A program made the position numbers and the translations under genes. The notes below the pieces were generated by a model. That model did not search any database and was not told the origin of the DNA. It worked only from the letters and a program-made list of their open reading frames with translations. DNA of 64,000 bases from Cylindrospermum stagnale PCC 7417 (lineage in GTDB: Bacteria > Cyanobacteriota > Cyanobacteriia > Cyanobacteriales > Nostocaceae), in assembly GCF_000317535.1 (NCBI RefSeq), contig NC_019744.1, forward strand, positions 62,001 to 126,000. The letters are read 5' to 3'. How positions within the stretch are numbered: position 1 is the first letter of the stretch; each line of letters begins with the position of its first letter. Positions 36,507 to 43,730 of the stretch are shown here, piece after piece.

Positions 36507-37070
36507 CTAACGAGATAAAATTCGTTTTCGCGCTCCAGTAACATTAATACGCATATTGATAACTTCCTTGCTAGCGCGGTAATATTCAACAGCCTCATCT
36601 ATTGTCATTCCAGTTTGAACGATATGGAGGGCAGCTTCTTCTGAAATTAAAAGTGCCGGACCTAACCAGTTTGCTTCATCTTCATATTCTTGGTTAAAAT
36701 TCCGGCATCCGCATTCGTTAAAAACTTCATCTGGCTGGTGTTGAAGGATACCATGACTTATTTCGTGAGAAACATTAGAAGCCTGACGTAGACGGCTGTG
36801 AGCGTCATTGTGAACAATTATTCTTTGCATACCATAAAACACTGTTATCGCAGAAAAACTTTTTATGTCTTTTTCTGTAAAATAGCGAACCTCTTCAGAA
36901 ATTTCATTTTGAAATTCCGACAGTGGAACAATAGGAATTGCTAAATGTTCAGCAAGCTGCCAAGGGCATAAGGGAGCGTGTGGTTTTAGACCAAGCTCTG
37001 CTCGAAACTCCCTGGCATAAGCACTTGCCTCCTTCTTAAAGCCACGACGGAACTTCGCCTTACCTGGCAT
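36507..37070 (-). CDS. ImmA/IrrE-family zinc metallopeptidase (CapP-like)
   Basis: 187 residues with the zinc motif HEISH (SNVSHEISHGILQH) and downstream acidic ligand region (EYEDEANWLGPALLI). Peptidases of this family cleave an HTH partner repressor. Start ATG 37070 is chosen because AGGAGG lies 9 nt upstream; the ATG at 37076 is too close. Directly downstream of the HTH gene. Confidence 0.88.
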   Translation of the reverse strand: MPGKAKFRRGFKKEASAYAREFRAELGLKPHAPLCPWQLAEHLAIPIVPLSEFQNEISEEVRYFTEKDIKSFSAITVFYGMQRIIVHNDAHSRLRQASNVSHEISHGILQHQPDEVFNECGCRNFNQEYEDEANWLGPALLISEEAALHIVQTGMTIDEAVEYYRASKEVINMRINVTGARKRILSR

Positions 37071-37111
37071 AAGCATTTGCCTCCTGACTAAAACCACAGC
37101 GTAATGTCATC

Positions 37112-37468
37112 TCATTGATCCTTGCGAAGTTTCTCGTAAGCAGCTTTGATGACAGCTTCCATTGCAGATGCAGCTTCTGGCGTTAAATGGGGATCTGCAC
37201 GCAAATACGCCGTAATTTTAGCGAGTGGTTCGGATTCGGTTAGAGTATCCTGTTCGCGCTTGATGAAGGAGTCTGCGTTCAGCCCAGACCATGTTAACAA
37301 AGCCGCCATACTGTCTACATCTGGTCGTCTACCTTGCGCGATCCGAGTCAAGGTAGACGCACTAACACCAGATTTTTCGGCAACTTGTTTCCATGTCATA
37401 CGCTTAGACAGCCGTTGGCTGTCTAATGCTGCATAAAAAGCTTCAACATCAAACTGTCCTTTTGCCAT
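37112..37468 (-). CDS. XRE-family HTH repressor (CapH-like)
   Basis: 118 residues with HTH at about residues 22-60 (MTWKQVAEKSGVSASTLTRI) and a helical tail. Start ATG 37468 with GGAGA upstream. Pairs with the peptidase and faces the ubiquitin-like operon. Such HTH/peptidase pairs regulate CBASS and other defence operons, opening them on DNA damage or infection (family knowledge); here that is inferred. Confidence 0.88.
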   Translation of the reverse strand: MAKGQFDVEAFYAALDSQRLSKRMTWKQVAEKSGVSASTLTRIAQGRRPDVDSMAALLTWSGLNADSFIKREQDTLTESEPLAKITAYLRADPHLTPEAASAMEAVIKAAYEKLRKDQ

Positions 37469-37488
37469 TTCATCTCCAATTTCACTCT

Positions 37489-37541
37489 TGCAATTTTAAA
37501 TCATGTGTGCAATATAATGGATAAAATTTCACAAGTGAAAT
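37489..37541 (+). promoter_or_regulatory. Promoter and operator of the ubiquitin-like operon
   Basis: TTGCAA (37489), 18-bp spacer, TATAAT (37513), then ATTTCAC-AA-GTGAAAT (37526-37541), a perfect 7-2-7 inverted repeat where transcription would start. A half-site ATTTCAC recurs at 37480. Position suits repression by the divergent HTH protein. Confidence 0.65.
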
Positions 37542-37566
37542 CAAAAGTCACTTATGCAACAACAAT

Positions 37567-38091
37567 ATGACGAACAATATCGTGGTTGAGCAGATTGAAC
37601 TGGAAGCGTGGGTCAAGCAGCACGGGGCTGTACAACCACCGCTTGCAAAACACTACTTAGTGCGGATTGATGACCGAAGTTACAAAGTAGACGACCCCGT
37701 GATTACGGGAGGGCAGCTGCTTGATGAAGCAAGCAAGAGACCTGTGGATGAGTACCTTATCTTCCAAGTGCTAAACAACGGTCAGTTAGAAGAAATCCGC
37801 CTTGATGAAACCGTTGAACTCAGAAAGCCTGGTATCGAGCGATTCATTACTTGCAAGAGCGATCGCTCCTTCCGTTTTGTCATCGACGGTCGGCGATTTG
37901 AATGGGGAGCGCCAATTATCACAGGGTTAAAGCTGAAGGAACTTGCTGGCGTTGACCTTGCATCCTATGGAGTTTGGCTTGAACTACGTGGTGCAGAAGA
38001 CCGCCCAATTGCCGATAACGAATCTGTCGATTTACAAGCACCAGGAGTCGAGCGATTCTTCACTGGTAAAAAGACTACAACGGAGGGTTAA
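37567..38091 (+). CDS. Multiubiquitin (two tandem ubiquitin-like domains)
   Basis: 174 residues with two beta-grasp repeats of the Multi_ubiq family (about residues 27-92 and 98-168). Each starts FxVRIDxRxY/FRFVIDGRRF-like and ends PGIERFIT / PGVERFFT. The C-terminus is TTTEG, a single terminal Gly. Likely the modifier conjugated or processed by the enzymes encoded next. Confidence 0.85.
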   Translation: MTNNIVVEQIELEAWVKQHGAVQPPLAKHYLVRIDDRSYKVDDPVITGGQLLDEASKRPVDEYLIFQVLNNGQLEEIRLDETVELRKPGIERFITCKSDRSFRFVIDGRRFEWGAPIITGLKLKELAGVDLASYGVWLELRGAEDRPIADNESVDLQAPGVERFFTGKKTTTEG

Positions 38092-38094
38092 GTA

Positions 38095-38475
38095 ATGAGC
38101 TTTTTACCCTCAAACGATCGCCAATACCTGGAAAACAGGGGTTTACCTTTTGAAGAAGTGGTAGATGCCAGTCAAAAGGGCGTTATTTTACGCGAATTTC
38201 AGTTACCACTTGGCCGTTTTGATACTGAACAGGCAGATATCTTAATTCTCTTGCCGAGCGGATACCCAGATGCACCCCCCGATATGTTTTACCTGCTGCC
38301 GTGGGTAAAGCTGGTACAAGGTGCAAAATACCCAAAGGCAGCCGATCAACCACACCAATTTAATGGTCAGAAATGGCAGCGATGGTCGAGACATAATAAC
38401 GAGTGGCGACCTGGTACAGATGGCATATGGACAATGCTCAAACGGATTGAAAATGCTCTGGAGGTGGCTGCTTGA
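38095..38475 (+). CDS. E2-like protein (Prok-E2 family E), no cysteine
   Basis: 126 residues; LILLPSGYPDAPPDMFYLLP matches the E2/UBC core and the family found in bacterial ubiquitin-like operons. The whole protein contains no cysteine, so it cannot form the usual E2 thioester. His/Trp-rich segment (WQRWSRHNNEWRPGTDGIWT) occupies the later core. GGAGG 8 nt before the ATG. Three bp after the multiubiquitin stop. Confidence 0.82.
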   Translation: MSFLPSNDRQYLENRGLPFEEVVDASQKGVILREFQLPLGRFDTEQADILILLPSGYPDAPPDMFYLLPWVKLVQGAKYPKAADQPHQFNGQKWQRWSRHNNEWRPGTDGIWTMLKRIENALEVAA

Positions 38476-39899
38476 ATACTGTAAGCTTGACATTGCAAGA
38501 GCAACACTCAAATTACCTGCACGAATTGCTATTAACCATAGATGGTAAAGAGCGAGCGGCCTATGTCTTGTGTGGACAGGCCGTTATCAATGCCGACCCT
38601 TGGGATGGGCAGCCTCACCAAAAATTCATTTCTTATGAAGTAATACCAGTGCCAGAGGATGAAATTGTTTCTTTCTCTGCCAAACACATTACCTGGAAAA
38701 CGGATTCTTTTGTTCGGGCATTGCAAGCAGCACAAGCGAAAAACCTGACACTAGCCATTTTCCACAGTCATCGAGAAGGCTTGAGAGAATTCTCTATTCA
38801 AGATGATACTAACGAACCAGACTTGATTCAACTGGCACAAAACCGCAACGGCTCAGATACACAGATTTTGAGTGTTATCCTAATGCCGGATGGAAATTTG
38901 GTTGGTCGCCTGTGGGTTAGTTCGCAAGAAGTTATCTCCTTGCGGATGATTCGTGTGATTGGGCAGAAAATCCGTTTGTATTATCCAAACCGGGGGCTGG
39001 GGGTTTCTCCTCCAGCATTCCAGCGACAGGCTTTAGCTTTTGGGGAGGCCCTCAATCAAGACTTATCGATGTTGCGTGTTGGGGTCATTGGTTGCGGCGG
39101 TACAGGAAGTGCGATCGCTATGTTGCTGCCAAAGATGGGTATTCGGAACATTGCACTTTTCGATAAAGACATTGTTGAGGATACAAATTTAAATCGGCTA
39201 CACGGTGCGCGTCAGCCAGATGCTGATGCTATGAGTCCCAAAGTTGAAGTTGTTGCCAAGTCACTTATGGAACTTGGACTTGGTGTTCAAGTGAGAACAT
39301 ATCAAGCTTGGATTGGAGAAGCAGACTGCCGCGATCCCCTGAAAGCGTGCGACGTAATTTTTTGTTGTACTGATGATCATACGGGTCGCCTAATGCTGAA
39401 TAGGTTTGCCTACTACTATGCAACACCTGTATTTGATATGGGTTTAGCAATTGAGGTTTCTCAAGGGGAAACGCCCAATTTTCAGGCTTTGGATGGTCGC
39501 GTCACGGTGCTTGCACCTGCACCAGGACACACCTGTCTATTGTGTCGTGAAGTTATAAATCCTGTTGCTGCAAGGGATGAAGCGTTGAAACGCAGTAATC
39601 CTGATGAGTACGAACGCCGCAAGGCAGAAGCCTACGTTATTGGAGAAGGAAACCCCAGCCCTGCCGTTGTTTTATTTACAACGGAGGTAGCAATTATGGC
39701 GATGCAGGAACTTGTCCACCGCCTTCAGGGTTTCCGTGGTGAGGATGGTGCAGCAGCTCACAGGGTTCGTAAATTCCATCTGACGACTGACCGTAAACCA
39801 GCAGCAATCCCTAATCCCAATTGCCCAGTTTGCGGGACAGCCGGTGCCCAGTGGTGGGGCAGAGGGGATGTTATGCCTTTCCTTAATCTGGTGGAGTAA
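38472..39899 (+). CDS. JAB peptidase-E1 (ThiF) fusion
   Basis: 475 residues. N-terminal JAMM domain with HSHREGLREFSIQDD (HxH, S, D zinc site). Then an E1/ThiF domain with nucleotide loop VGVIGCGGTGSAIAML, FDKDIVEDTNLNRL, and paired CxxC (CLLC and CPVC) for structural zinc. It would both process and adenylate the modifier. TTG start at 38472 overlaps the E2 stop by 4 bp and has GGAGG 7 nt upstream. Confidence 0.9.
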   Translation: MNTVSLTLQEQHSNYLHELLLTIDGKERAAYVLCGQAVINADPWDGQPHQKFISYEVIPVPEDEIVSFSAKHITWKTDSFVRALQAAQAKNLTLAIFHSHREGLREFSIQDDTNEPDLIQLAQNRNGSDTQILSVILMPDGNLVGRLWVSSQEVISLRMIRVIGQKIRLYYPNRGLGVSPPAFQRQALAFGEALNQDLSMLRVGVIGCGGTGSAIAMLLPKMGIRNIALFDKDIVEDTNLNRLHGARQPDADAMSPKVEVVAKSLMELGLGVQVRTYQAWIGEADCRDPLKACDVIFCCTDDHTGRLMLNRFAYYYATPVFDMGLAIEVSQGETPNFQALDGRVTVLAPAPGHTCLLCREVINPVAARDEALKRSNPDEYERRKAEAYVIGEGNPSPAVVLFTTEVAIMAMQELVHRLQGFRGEDGAAAHRVRKFHLTTDRKPAAIPNPNCPVCGTAGAQWWGRGDVMPFLNLVE

Positions 39900-39902
39900 G
39901 GG

Positions 39903-40262
39903 ATGTTTCTTCGCGGTGTAGTTAGACAGTTATTAATCTGGCTGCGTTTTATTCGTCAGCCAGACTTATCAGCACGGATAGTTCCAACACATCCTGCACC
40001 TGAGAATATAAAACCAGGGGAGATTTTAGTCGTTGGTGATGCTGAATATCAGAAATGGGCTTGTTTTCGTTGCCCTGGAGGATGTGGTGAAAATATTTTG
40101 CTGTCTTTGAATCAAAAGCGGCATCCTTGCTGGGCGATCGCCATTGATTCGTTGGGGCGACCAACACTTAATCCTTCTGTTAGGCAGCTTAACGAATGCC
40201 ACTGCCACTTTTGGGTGCGTCAGGGAGTTGTTGAATGGTGCGCTGATTCAGGACAGAAATAA
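39903..40262 (+). CDS. DUF6527-family protein
   Basis: 119 residues, Cys/His-rich (CFRCPGGCGENILLSL, CHCHFWVRQGVVEWC), consistent with a zinc-binding fold. The family is a regular last member of bacterial multiubiquitin operons; biochemical role unknown. Three bp after the E1 stop. Confidence 0.78.
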   Translation: MFLRGVVRQLLIWLRFIRQPDLSARIVPTHPAPENIKPGEILVVGDAEYQKWACFRCPGGCGENILLSLNQKRHPCWAIAIDSLGRPTLNPSVRQLNECHCHFWVRQGVVEWCADSGQK

Positions 40263-40718: not shown

Positions 40719-41807
40719 ATGTTTCCGCTTATCACACACTTTGAAGAACTGCTCAAGAACATTCAACCACCCCAAGAACGCCTTGATGCAGCACGCGATT
40801 TGCCACCCTTAGTCCGTGAGTACATTGCCAAAAGCAAAGATTTTCCCACTGTCTACCCTCACTCTCGACTTGCAGGCTCATACGCCCAAAAAATGGCAGT
40901 AGGTGATGTTAAAGACGTAGATACCCTAATACGTGTCCCTGGCGATCCAAAGGCAAATGAACCAGAGGCTAAACGATTAATTCAAGACATGAAAAAGTTG
41001 CTTGATGGCTTGCCAAAAGCTTTGGGCTTTGAGGGATATGCAGAAGCGGAAATAGAAGTAGAGCGGGCACGCCGATCCGTCCATGTCTACTTCAAAGGCA
41101 AAGATTTCCACCTAGACTTTGTTCCTTGCATTGCACCAAATGGATTCGAGAGTGTGCTTTACGTCCCAGATCGAGGATTCAATAAGTGGATTGCATCGCA
41201 CCCCATCGGGTATATCAACTTACTCAATGAGCTACAGGAAAAACACGACCACAAAGTTAAACCACTTGGCAAGCTTCTGAAGCACTTCCGTGACTGCCAA
41301 ATGAAAAGCCGCAAACCCAAGAGTTACTGGCTTGGCGCTCTGCTAGTTAATCATATCCAAAAGAACACTTTAGACATGACACAGCCATTGGCAGTTCTAT
41401 TTTACGAGCTTTTGGATGCTATTTACTGCCAATACGATCACCTGCTATATACTAGCAATGTTGCAACCCCAAACCTCTCCGATCCAATCCTTGGTCATAA
41501 CATCTCTTGGAACTGGAGTCGCACCCACTTTGAAACCTTCATGAGACGGATTAATGAGGGACGGGATTGGGCAGCTAAAGCTTTAGAGACTGATGATCGG
41601 GAGAAGGCAATTAAATACTGGCAAAAAATCTTTAAAGAAGAATATTTTCCATCAGAGGTAGAAACCGCTGCGTCTCAATTGGCTAAAGTGGGTTTACCTG
41701 GCAAATCTTACGTCAGCTCTACTGGTTTGATTCTGCCCAGCCAACCTGCTTCTGGTTTATACACTTCAACCATTGCAACCAAGTTTCATGGGATTGACCA
41801 AGGCTGA
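40719..41807 (+). CDS. CBASS CD-NTase (cyclic oligonucleotide synthase)
   Basis: 362 residues, nucleotidyltransferase fold: GSYAQKMAVGDVKDVDTLIR gives the GS motif and two catalytic Asp, and FHLDFVPC the third. On phage sensing it would make a cyclic nucleotide for the SAVED effector downstream. The C-terminus is GIDQG; a terminal Gly suits conjugation by the E2-type partner. Confidence 0.9.
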   Translation: MFPLITHFEELLKNIQPPQERLDAARDLPPLVREYIAKSKDFPTVYPHSRLAGSYAQKMAVGDVKDVDTLIRVPGDPKANEPEAKRLIQDMKKLLDGLPKALGFEGYAEAEIEVERARRSVHVYFKGKDFHLDFVPCIAPNGFESVLYVPDRGFNKWIASHPIGYINLLNELQEKHDHKVKPLGKLLKHFRDCQMKSRKPKSYWLGALLVNHIQKNTLDMTQPLAVLFYELLDAIYCQYDHLLYTSNVATPNLSDPILGHNISWNWSRTHFETFMRRINEGRDWAAKALETDDREKAIKYWQKIFKEEYFPSEVETAASQLAKVGLPGKSYVSSTGLILPSQPASGLYTSTIATKFHGIDQG

Positions 41808-42282
41808 ATATTCTCAATTGAAACCCACTATCAACCTGGGGCTGCAAAACCTACACATATTGCACCGATTTCCTGGGTTCGCTTACAGGCGAGAGCGTGG
41901 GGTAGCTGTATGGCGAGGCACGCTTCAACCCCGTCAGTTTTCCCCAAAATATCGAGTAGCAATCCGCTACAAACTCAGCTCTTACCCAACCGTTAATGTC
42001 ATATCTCCCTCTTTGGCATCACGACCTCCCCATGTTTGGAAAGACGGAACTTTATGCCTCTACTACCCCAAAGAAAAACCGTGGCAGAAAGATATGCTGC
42101 TTGCAAAGACTATCATCCCGTGGACTGCATTATGGTTATATTACTATGAACTGTGGCTAGATACTGGAAAATGGCTCGGACCATCATCACACGCCTCAGA
42201 TTCAAAACTCCAAAGTTGGAGTTCCAATCCCGTTGAAGGGTATTCTATTTTGGAAAAACCGACTGAGCAGCAAACCGCATGA
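41788..42282 (+). CDS. CBASS E2-like protein (short type II)
   Basis: 164 residues. Core PPHVWKDGTLCLYYPKEKPW with the probable catalytic Cys (TLCLYY), then TIIPWTALWLYYYELWLDTG. This is the E2-only protein of short type II CBASS. ATG 41788 used; overlaps the CD-NTase by 20 bp. No E1 is in this operon; the JAB-E1 fusion at 38472 is the nearest. Confidence 0.85.
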   Translation: MGLTKAEYSQLKPTINLGLQNLHILHRFPGFAYRRERGVAVWRGTLQPRQFSPKYRVAIRYKLSSYPTVNVISPSLASRPPHVWKDGTLCLYYPKEKPWQKDMLLAKTIIPWTALWLYYYELWLDTGKWLGPSSHASDSKLQSWSSNPVEGYSILEKPTEQQTA

Positions 42283-43730
42283 CAGAGAGCGAACATTTGA
42301 CTCCCTCACTCCTAGAACCACAGTCTCGTGGTGGTGATATTGCTGAAGGTGGCTTTTCCTTTCAAGAGCAAGTCATGCTTGCTCGCATTCCTGCTTGGCT
42401 AGCTCAGGATGGCTTCACAGCTATGATCCGGGAAGGAATTGGAGATGTAGAGGCAAAGTTTTTTGTACCCGGCCGTGGGTTTGCGATAGAGTTTCTTGAA
42501 GTTAAAGACCATACACTCCAACCATCTAAGTTTTTAAATGAAATTCAACGGTTCCGAGAAGTAGATGCTGGTAGTCCAAACACCTATCACCAATTTATAC
42601 TTGTAGCAGGAGTTTCCAGAGACTTAGAGCCTTTGGTAAATGGATTGCGCCGCGTTCGTAATCCTCAAGATTTTTATGAAGAAAACTCTACAGTCAAAGA
42701 AAATTCTTTCAAAGAGTATACCCGCCTAGTCAAAAAAATTGGCGGCACAGAACAAGATGCCTTTTTCATTTTTGAAAAGGTGATAGTCGAGGCAGATTGG
42801 AACACCGCAAAATCTCATGGCGAAGCTCTTTTTAAGCAGTCTTTGGCTGACAATCTGAGTGAATATGAAGATTTATCTTTTAGAACTTTTGATAATATTT
42901 ATAATCACTTAGGTACATTTATACGACAGCGCAAGAATCAAAATATTACCCGCAAAGAGTTAGAGACAAAACTACGGGAAAAAATTCCTCCCAGTCAACT
43001 ACCAGCCCTCCGTCCCATCCTGATTTACACAGCCATTACCTCTGAAAATAACCCAGAGCATCATGGATTGTGTTTCGATTGGGCCCCTTTTTCTGGTGGT
43101 GAAACTCGTGCGATTGCCCCATCCCAAGAGTGGAATCGCTTACTCATTGAACTACAGGATACTCGAAGCTGGATTGAAAAGTATAGAAATACTAAGCGAA
43201 TCAGGCTTGCTGGCAATCGTCGTCTGGCAGCATGTCTTGCAATAGGATCTGTCTTCTCAGCTGTTAGGGGCTACGCAATTGAAATGGAATACCGTGAAGA
43301 GGTATGGGCAACAGATGCTCATCCCACTCAAGAAACCCCCGTTTATCCTTTGGCTCATCAGATGATAGGCAGAACAGGAACCCGCTTGGTTGTTAGCATA
43401 GGTATTCTTCGAGATATTATTCCTGAAGTCGAAGTTAATCTGGAGAAGTATGGACTCACAGGTGAGCCACTGCTTCACATTAGAGGAGAGCATCCTATTA
43501 CTTCTCCACAACATGCCAACAATGCCGTTGGAGGCATTAAAAAATTAATTGTCAATAACTTAGTGTGCATAGGCGGTAAAGAAATCCATTTATTTTTTGC
43601 TGGGCCTGCTCATCTTGCTCTATTCCTGGGACATCGCTTGGACGCTACAGCACCAGTCACTTGCTACGCATGGGTATCTAATGGTCAATACTCTAAAACA
43701 TTTCAACTCTTTTCAGGAATTTCCAGCTAA
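42279..43730 (+). CDS. CBASS effector: PD-(D/E)xK nuclease fused to SAVED domain (Cap4-like)
   Basis: 483 residues. N-terminal nuclease region (GGFSFQEQVMLARIPAWLAQ, GDVEAKFF, FAIEFLEVKDH giving D...ExK), then a C-terminal SAVED sensor (ending region IHLFFAGPAHLALFLGHRL). Cyclic nucleotide binding would switch on DNA cleavage. Start overlaps the E2 stop by 4 bp. Confidence 0.87.
   Translation: MTESEHLTPSLLEPQSRGGDIAEGGFSFQEQVMLARIPAWLAQDGFTAMIREGIGDVEAKFFVPGRGFAIEFLEVKDHTLQPSKFLNEIQRFREVDAGSPNTYHQFILVAGVSRDLEPLVNGLRRVRNPQDFYEENSTVKENSFKEYTRLVKKIGGTEQDAFFIFEKVIVEADWNTAKSHGEALFKQSLADNLSEYEDLSFRTFDNIYNHLGTFIRQRKNQNITRKELETKLREKIPPSQLPALRPILIYTAITSENNPEHHGLCFDWAPFSGGETRAIAPSQEWNRLLIELQDTRSWIEKYRNTKRIRLAGNRRLAACLAIGSVFSAVRGYAIEMEYREEVWATDAHPTQETPVYPLAHQMIGRTGTRLVVSIGILRDIIPEVEVNLEKYGLTGEPLLHIRGEHPITSPQHANNAVGGIKKLIVNNLVCIGGKEIHLFFAGPAHLALFLGHRLDATAPVTCYAWVSNGQYSKTFQLFSGISS

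What the first reader, a model, noticed from the sequence alone, without database searches (positions are those of the whole stretch)
36507..40262. Ubiquitin-like operon under a CapH/CapP-type switch
An HTH protein and HEISH peptidase are divergent from multiubiquitin, E2-like, JAB-E1 and DUF6527 genes. A perfect ATTTCAC-AA-GTGAAAT lies just after the operon's TATAAT. HTH/peptidase pairs are known to control CBASS; control of a multiubiquitin operon by one would be a notable combination.
Basis: partly seen in the sequence, partly recalled or inferred. Interest (0 to 1): 0.78.

Follow-up and report, generated by a model that had tools for sequence, protein, structure and literature searches.

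The report
Protease-released switch on bacterial ubiquitin operon
A cyanobacterial plasmid carries a bacterial ubiquitin-like (Bub) operon next to a repressor and the peptidase expected to destroy it; this pairing is already in print, but comparison of related promoters adds a conserved two-site operator that makes the switch directly testable.

Summary
An HTH gene and an M78 (HEISH) peptidase gene stand divergent from a multiubiquitin / E2 / JAB-E1 / DUF6527 operon, here identified as a Bub operon. The 16-base palindrome is real but is one of two sites. Across 20 cyanobacterial promoters the conserved element is TTKC-N6-GMAA, present twice, 44-48 bp apart; 18 of 20 fit strictly, and no shuffle of 8 diverged promoters gave such a pair. 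A viral-contig relative (L048, HTH 55% identical, beside Multi_ubiq) has it too; four Bub loci with other controller subtypes do not. O2's arms co-vary. Best reading: the HTH protein represses both divergent promoters, and the peptidase removes it under stress. The novelty claim fails: Kopfmann 2016 reported such pairs at 70% of multiubiquitin proteins (read as toxin-antitoxin), and a 2026 EMBO J paper reports CapW or CapH+CapP at 219 of 544 Bub operons. Strict CapH/CapP membership is weak (capH E=0.003, capP 1e-6 over part of the model, no C-terminal sensor domain). The controller's short-peptidase clade also faces pPIWI-RE operons. The neighbouring CBASS shows no such operator. Binding, cleavage and signal are untested.

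The parts
36507..37097 (-). M78 (ImmA/IrrE/PprI/CapP-like) metallopeptidase, HEISH; 196 aa as called from a GTG, true start probably an internal ATG (inference from relatives' starts)
   Evidence: Pfam PF06114 9e-18; PADLOC capP 1.1e-6, model 31-112 of 242; model's best folds are IrrE/PprI and Thauera CapP
37112..37468 (-). Cro/C1-type HTH repressor (118 aa): HTH domain, variable linker, conserved C-terminal helices
   Evidence: HTH_3 1.1e-7; alignment A3; model; fold hits include DdrO and CapH N-terminal domain among many HTH proteins
37478..37495 (.). Operator O1 (TTTC-N6-GCAA); contains the -35-like TTGCAA 37488-37493 of the Bub promoter
37506..37512 (+). Extra conserved half-site TGTGCAA directly before the -10
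   Evidence: mean column identity 0.98 over 8 diverged rows
37513..37518 (+). TATAAT, likely -10 of the Bub operon; overlaps TATATT (37516-37511) of the reverse promoter
   Evidence: sequence, scan for the reverse promoter; not conserved in diverged relatives
37525..37542 (.). Operator O2 (perfect ATTTCAC-AA-GTGAAAT in 37526-37541); contains TTCACT (37539-37534), -35-like for the hth gene
37555..37560 (+). TGCAAC half-site after O2, in register with the half-site after O1 (35-base units starting 37479 and 37526, 23 of 35 identical)
37567..38091 (+). BubA: two Multi_ubiq domains, ends ...KKTTTEG
   Evidence: PF14452 7e-49; PDB multi-ubiquitin protein 9cd2 9e-36 and others
38095..38475 (+). BubB: Prok-E2_E
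   Evidence: PF14462 7e-57; PDB Citrobacter BubB 3e-13
38472..39899 (+). BubCD: JAB + E1 (ThiF)
   Evidence: PDB Citrobacter BubCD 5e-36
39903..40262 (+). DUF6527 protein, last gene of the operon
   Evidence: PF20137 2e-23

Best explanation
The HTH protein is the local repressor of the Bub operon and of its own gene. It binds as dimers to O1 and O2, which flank the shared -10 region of two facing promoters and overlap their -35-like elements. Under stress the M78 peptidase cleaves the HTH protein, most likely in or next to its C-terminal part, dimers are lost, both promoters open, and the Bub conjugation enzymes are made together with fresh repressor that resets the switch. Shown by sequence comparison: the two sites, their spacing, covariation of O2's arms, linkage to this HTH clade. 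Inferred: binding, repression, promoter positions, cleavage. The signal is open: single-stranded DNA as for CapP/PprI, or zinc/redox as proposed for IrrE.
For: Site pair with 44-48 bp spacing in 18 of 20 cyanobacterial intergenics; 8 of 8 diverged ones, 0 of 3000 shuffles each. The same pair, 43 bp apart, stands between HTH and Multi_ubiq genes of viral contig L048 whose HTH is 55% identical (0 of 3000 shuffles), while 4 of 4 Bub loci with other controller subtypes tested (L015, L021, L022, L030) have no strict site. O2 arms co-vary: TTTC/GAAA against TTGC/GCAA (9 and 8 of 18 distinct rows, one intermediate), two further two-sided changes in L020; covariation 0.178 against 0.107+-0.013 shuffled (0/500) and at most 0.100 slid, both sites together. 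Arms 0.94 identical over 8 diverged rows against 0.60 for the O2 spacer. HTH recognition region invariant in 16 rows. Peptidase model's top five folds are IrrE/PprI and CapP; HExxH invariant in 13 rows. Related operons are inducible: sll6052-sll6055 up under isoprene stress (PMC4836186) and listed among late-growth genes (PMC7853294); alr7502 and alr7504 proteins up with BMAA (PMC8147232). ssDNA-driven cleavage is reported for CapP/CapH and PprI/DdrO (passages).
Against: No binding, cleavage or expression data for this locus. The covariation rests on few events (the T/A-G/C switch is probably one event; L020 adds another), all in O2: O1 has no two-sided change and one of its pairs is unpaired in 10 of 18 rows; two of the five covariation measures are not striking (two-sided pairs 4, reached by 24 of 500 shuffles; further pair types 10, reached by 88 of 500). 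The stretch between O1 and the half-site is also well conserved (0.82) and the O1 spacer reaches 0.77. Fold matches are weak (E about 2e-3, TM about 0.5; shallow alignments). Promoter elements are consensus matches at chance density (9 found, 7.9 expected), and the TATAAT is not conserved. L014 keeps O2 although its HTH gene is gone. Three other viral-contig HTH relatives (L046, L047, L049) have no strict site upstream.
Confidence: 0.75

Rival explanations
1. The HTH/M78 pair is a toxin-antitoxin module that stabilises the cassette (the 2016 reading); the operators serve only its autoregulation.
For: Proposed by Kopfmann 2016 for Slr6056-Slr6057 (PMC4963859, section 2.4.1 whole and other passages), listed there as a predicted TA locus; the passages seen give no toxicity test of this pair.
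Against: O2 lies on the Bub side of the -10, not only at the hth promoter; the M78 fold is that of repressor-cleaving IrrE/CapP; related Bub operons are stress-responsive; several HTH-M78 subtypes stand at the same operon type.
Confidence: 0.12
2. The pair is a strict CapH/CapP whose peptidase senses single-stranded DNA as CapP does.
For: PADLOC capP 1.1e-6; CapP among the five best folds; a canonical CapH/CapP stands at another Bub operon (L022: capP 1.4e-65, capH 5e-29); Arg seven residues before HEISH is invariant, as Arg85 before His92 in PprI.
Against: capH only E=0.003, capP only over positions 31-112 of 242; the protein ends after the predicted HTH-like helices, so the GAF-like domain with PprI's Arg207 and Arg267 has no counterpart; in the tree its nearest non-Bub kin are the pPIWI-RE controllers, not L022 (L022 is a long branch).
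Confidence: 0.25
3. O1 and O2 are bound by another factor (a global regulator) and the HTH gene is only a neighbour.
For: No binding shown; the sites were not compared with the motifs of other regulators.
Against: The exact 16-mer occurs once in the genome and its only 1-mismatch copy is inside an ORF; the site pair is present with this HTH clade, even in L048, and absent at 4 of 4 Bub loci with other controller subtypes tested; the HTH is single-copy in the genome.
Confidence: 0.06
4. The switch also governs the type II-short CBASS genes downstream (40719-43730) by read-through.
For: Same strand, 456 bp after the last Bub gene; no + strand promoter-like site was listed in that gap.
Against: No TTKC-N6-GMAA site in the gap; CBASS is absent from the fetched stretches of near relatives L008, L012, L013.
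Confidence: 0.2

Closest known systems
CapH+CapP beside Bub operons (PMC13373217, passages; Lau 2022 as cited there, not read)
   Same: HTH repressor plus M78 peptidase next to a Bub operon; the paper counts 219 of 544 Bub operons with CapW or CapH+CapP
   Different: Here a short, GAF-less peptidase and an HTH that the capH model barely finds; a mapped pair of operators
Slr6056-Slr6057 with sll6052-sll6055 on Synechocystis pSYSX (PMC4963859)
   Same: Homologous locus (L029), same gene order, two operators 46 bp apart
   Different: Read there as toxin-antitoxin; no operator described in the passages seen
DdrO / PprI (IrrE) of Deinococcus
   Same: Fold of the peptidase; XRE-type repressor cleaved by it
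   Different: PprI has a GAF-like domain and controls a set of DNA-damage genes
ImmR / ImmA of mobile elements (mostly recalled; PMC7907104 passages say that the other studied COG2856 proteins lack the GAF-like domain)
   Same: Short peptidase without GAF domain beside a repressor
   Different: Controls mobile-element genes, not a Bub operon
HTH-M78 pairs facing pPIWI-RE operons (L050-L052)
   Same: Same peptidase clade (99/98 support), same divergent layout and peptidase size
   Different: Different defence operon; no spaced operator pair of this type in the three intergenics (one single site in L052)

Membership tests
Bub operon | BubA multiubiquitin-like protein | tested here: met
   PF14452 7e-49; PDB multi-ubiquitin proteins (Citrobacter BubA itself only 0.14)
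Bub operon | BubB E2-like protein | tested here: met
   Citrobacter BubB 3e-13
Bub operon | BubCD JAB-E1 fusion | tested here: met
   Citrobacter BubCD 5e-36, residues 8-422
Bub operon | Conjugation activity | not testable with these tools
   needs biochemistry
CapH/CapP | HTH gene and M78 peptidase gene side by side at a defence-type operon | tested here: met
CapH/CapP | Match to the capH and capP family models | tested here: inconclusive
   capH 0.003; capP 1.1e-6 over 31-112 of 242, against 5e-29 and 1.4e-65 for L022
CapH/CapP | IrrE/CapP fold with HEXXH zinc site | tested here: met
   HExxH invariant; top five folds IrrE/PprI and 7t5t CapP, weak scores
CapH/CapP | C-terminal GAF-like domain as in PprI (for CapP inferred from model length) | tested here: not met
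   196 aa; model ends after the HTH-like helices; capP match stops at 112 of 242
CapH/CapP | Repressor bound at the operon's promoter | tested here: inconclusive
   conserved operators that track the HTH clade; no binding data
CapH/CapP | ssDNA-stimulated cleavage of the HTH protein | not testable with these tools
   needs purified proteins
Toxin-antitoxin module | Toxicity of one partner neutralised by the other | not testable with these tools
   no test of this pair in the passages of PMC4963859 seen

The most novel reading that the evidence does not exclude
The window's pair represents a separate class of defence controller: a short HTH-M78 pair without a ssDNA-sensing C-terminal domain that has been attached to at least two unrelated defence-type systems (Bub and pPIWI-RE), works at Bub through a two-operator lock on facing promoters, and answers a signal other than ssDNA, for example free zinc or redox state.
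Probability: 0.3. Interest if true: 0.55.

Novelty: new member of a known kind. Interest (0 to 1): 0.38.

Why it matters
It turns a published gene pairing into a testable regulatory map in a tractable organism: a homologous locus sits on Synechocystis PCC 6803 pSYSX. Knowing what turns Bub on would help answer what Bub is for, since the 2026 paper says Bub has not been shown to protect against phage. The lack of the C-terminal domain asks how such short controllers sense stress.

Tried and rejected
Single palindrome as the operator: rejected; the spaced pair is what is conserved. Control of CBASS through an operator of its own: none found in the 456-bp gap. Second genomic copy of the 16-mer as a regulon member: it lies inside an ORF. 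Sequence search of the HTH and peptidase in the PDB gave nothing useful. Literature: in searches I saw no listed paper that describes these operators; the main Bub papers (PMC12885553, PMC12145246) are not held and Lau 2022 was not read, so the operators could be described there. Rows dropped before the operator counts: L014 (HTH gene lost, O2 kept), L015 (other HTH-M78 subtype), L030 (fused HTH-M78), L039 (other operon class) and the non-cyanobacterial loci; L014, L015, L021, L022, L030 and L048 were looked at afterwards, the other non-cyanobacterial Bub loci (L023, L024, L031-L038, L040) were not scanned for the sites.
Full report
The observation. Searches confirm every gene and coordinate. 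The four genes on the + strand are BubA, BubB, BubCD and a DUF6527 protein: against the PDB the JAB-E1 finds Citrobacter BubCD at 5e-36, the E2 finds BubB at 3e-13 and the multiubiquitin protein finds solved multi-ubiquitin proteins at up to 9e-36, though Citrobacter BubA only at 0.14. The window lies on contig C1 of a 7.6-Mb genome of four contigs; contig C2 is 7.0 Mb, so C1 is probably a plasmid. Close copies are on plasmids typed as conjugative, of Nostoc sp. C052 (97.5%) and Chroococcidiopsis (92.9% over 63%).

How common the arrangement is. I fetched 36 further multiubiquitin loci: all 20 found by one scan of genome contigs and 16 of the 60 plasmid records listed out of 168, most of them among the nearest in sequence, so this is not an unbiased sample. 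An M78 peptidase gene is near the operon in 33 of 36: all 20 of the first set and L025-L037 of the second. None is annotated at L038, L039 or L040, and the unnamed genes before the helicase at L039 and L040 match no M78 model. A recognised HTH partner is present in 29 of 36, counting L030, where HTH and M78 are fused in one 370-aa protein. The other seven are L014 (HTH lost), L033, L036 and L037 (M78 with two neighbours that match no HTH family; weak or sub-threshold other matches) and L038-L040. In the phylum sample Multi_ubiq is rare: 3 of 386 genomes, the window's own included.

The operator. The 20 intergenics aligned are the window, 14 of the 16 cyanobacterial loci and 5 of the 7 cyanobacterial plasmid loci; dropped were L014, L015, L030 and L039. 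Two sites stand out, O1 and O2, with core TTKC-N6-GMAA and centres 44-48 bp apart (47 in 15 of 20). The strict pattern finds both in 18 of 20; L007 and L025 carry TTTTAC in the left arm of O2. For 8 diverged representatives, 8 of 8 have the pair and 0 of 3000 dinucleotide shuffles of each does. Mean column identity over those 8 is 0.94 in both sets of arms and 0.98 in an extra half-site TGTGCAA, against 0.60 in the O2 spacer, 0.65 at the -10, 0.77 in the O1 spacer and 0.82 in the stretch between O1 and the half-site.

Independent checks. Viral contig L048 has an HTH protein 55% identical to the window's, an M78 gene and a divergent Multi_ubiq gene. Between them stand TTGCTAGATTGCAA and TTGCAAGATTGCAA, 43 bp apart; 0 of 3000 shuffles give such a pair. 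In contrast the Bub intergenics with other controller subtypes that I scanned, L015, L021, L022 and L030, have no strict site (0 of 4). The other three viral-contig HTH relatives, L046, L047 and L049, have none upstream either; I did not find a Multi_ubiq gene at them in the ORF lists of L047 and L049. L014 keeps O2 alone.

Covariation. The arms of O2 change together: T-A in 9 and G-C in 8 of 18 distinct rows at one pair with L013 intermediate, and L020 has two further two-sided changes. For both sites together the covariation score is 0.178 against 0.107 +- 0.013 shuffled (0 of 500) and at most 0.100 for slid partners. Weaker measures: pairs with two-sided change 4 (24 of 500 shuffles reach it), further pair types 10 (88 of 500). 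O1 shows no two-sided change. These are few evolutionary events, so this supports but does not prove a dimer site. O1 and O2 start two 35-base units that are 23 of 35 identical, each a palindrome followed by a TGCAA half-site.

Layout of the switch. O1 holds TTGCAA (37488-37493), 19 bp before TATAAT (37513-37518). On the other strand TTCACT in O2 and TATATT form a promoter-like pair with a 17-bp spacer pointing at the hth gene. A repressor on both sites would shut both promoters. Promoter calls are consensus matches at chance density and the TATAAT is not kept in diverged relatives, so start sites need measuring.

The proteins. The HTH alignment of 16 sequences has an invariant recognition region (SASTLTR) and a variable linker before conserved C-terminal helices. 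Its best fold hits are a Clostridioides DNA-binding protein (3ivp) and SinR; DdrO is fourth and the CapH N-terminal domain thirteenth, so the fold does not single out CapH. The peptidase's five best fold hits are IrrE/PprI entries and Thauera CapP at E of 2e-3 to 5e-3; the next, a mycobacterial regulator, is about tenfold weaker. PADLOC's capP model matches at 1.1e-6 over 31-112 of 242, capH at 0.003, whereas a Bub operon of Altererythrobacter (L022) has capP at 1.4e-65 and capH at 5e-29. The window peptidase ends where PprI's GAF-like domain would begin (inference). PMC7907104 (passages) reports that IrrE without its GAF-like domain can still be activated and proposes zinc as the signal; PMC10904395 (passages) reports ssDNA. 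The signal here is therefore open.

Kinship. A tree of 25 peptidases (near-identical rows left out) puts the nine cyanobacterial Bub peptidases used, L048 and three that face pPIWI-RE operons in one clade (99/98), apart from the other Bub-linked peptidases. Deep branches are weak, L022 and L030 are long, and the tree program warns that some of these joins, that of the pPIWI-RE set among them, may be long-branch effects. The pPIWI-RE genes were recognised in all three loci (L050, L051, L052). So several HTH-M78 subtypes stand at Bub operons, and the window's subtype has kin at another defence-type operon. In the 386-genome sample the HTH profile found, at E up to 1e-6, the window and these three only.

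Prior work. PMC4963859 (section 2.4.1 read whole, other passages) describes the homologous pair Slr6056-Slr6057 at the multiubiquitin cassette of Synechocystis pSYSX and the alr7502-alr7505 locus of Anabaena 7120, and states that 70% of PF14452 proteins are adjacent to such loci, read as toxin-antitoxin. PMC13373217 (passages) states that 219 of 544 Bub operons are associated with CapW or CapH+CapP and 59 with CapK+CapS, and that Bub has not been shown to protect against phage. Related operons respond to conditions (passages): sll6052-sll6055 in isoprene producers and among late-growth genes, alr7502 and alr7504 proteins under BMAA. None of these shows that the HTH protein is the cause.

The neighbourhood. 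A type II-short CBASS (CD-NTase, E2, Cap4-SAVED; the type name is recalled) and an AIPR gene follow. The 456-bp gap has no operator-like site. Among near relatives CBASS is present at L005, L009, L010 and L025, in part at L006 and L026, and absent from the fetched stretches of L008, L012 and L013; L007 and L011 are too short to tell. I see no evidence that the switch controls it.

Verdict. A real locus with a well-supported local switch, of a published kind. New here, as far as the searches listed show, are the operator map and the link to the short-peptidase clade that also faces pPIWI-RE operons.

Noticed in passing
L050, L051, L052 (G070, G167, G024): HTH-M78 pairs of the same peptidase clade stand divergent from pPIWI-RE operons (REase-type and PprDinG-type genes; in L050 and L052 the helicase matches come in pieces). 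L052's intergenic holds TTTCATAAGTGAAA.
   Followed up: partly
L028:6025-6861, L031-L036: BubA and BubB are one reading frame; in the five fused junctions printed (L028, L031, L032, L034, L035) the ...TTEG end of BubA is kept before the E2 part, suggesting processing at that glycine.
   Followed up: partly
L030:4747-5859: Pseudanabaena galeata has HTH and M78 fused into one 370-aa protein at its Bub operon, with different palindromes in the promoter.
   Followed up: partly
L014:5404-6001: Scytonematopsis MAG locus has lost the HTH gene and O1 but keeps O2 and the peptidase.
   Followed up: partly
window 40719-43730: Type II-short CBASS (CD-NTase, E2, Cap4 nuclease-SAVED) directly after the Bub operon, variably present in near relatives.
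   Followed up: partly
L031, L032, L034, L035 upstream of BubA: Alphaproteobacterial and Methylomagnum Bub operons face a four-gene set: small (RHH-like) regulator, GNAT or unknown, HTH, long M78 peptidase.
   Followed up: partly
L033, L036, L037 upstream of BubA: Here the peptidase is accompanied by two proteins (about 138 and 189-197 aa) without a recognised HTH; one is annotated sigma-70-like in L036, and L033's has a sub-threshold sigma-70 match.
   Followed up: partly
L039, L040: Another multiubiquitin class follows a UvrD-type helicase gene on the same strand and has no recognised M78 gene in the fetched stretch.
   Followed up: partly
L048:1-1577: A viral contig carries an HTH (55% to the window's) and M78 pair divergent from a Multi_ubiq gene that runs to the contig end, with its own operator pair at 576 and 619.
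   Followed up: yes
L021, L031, L032, L035, L036: dCTP deaminase genes (PADLOC dCTPase in L021) stand beside Bub operons repeatedly.
   Followed up: no
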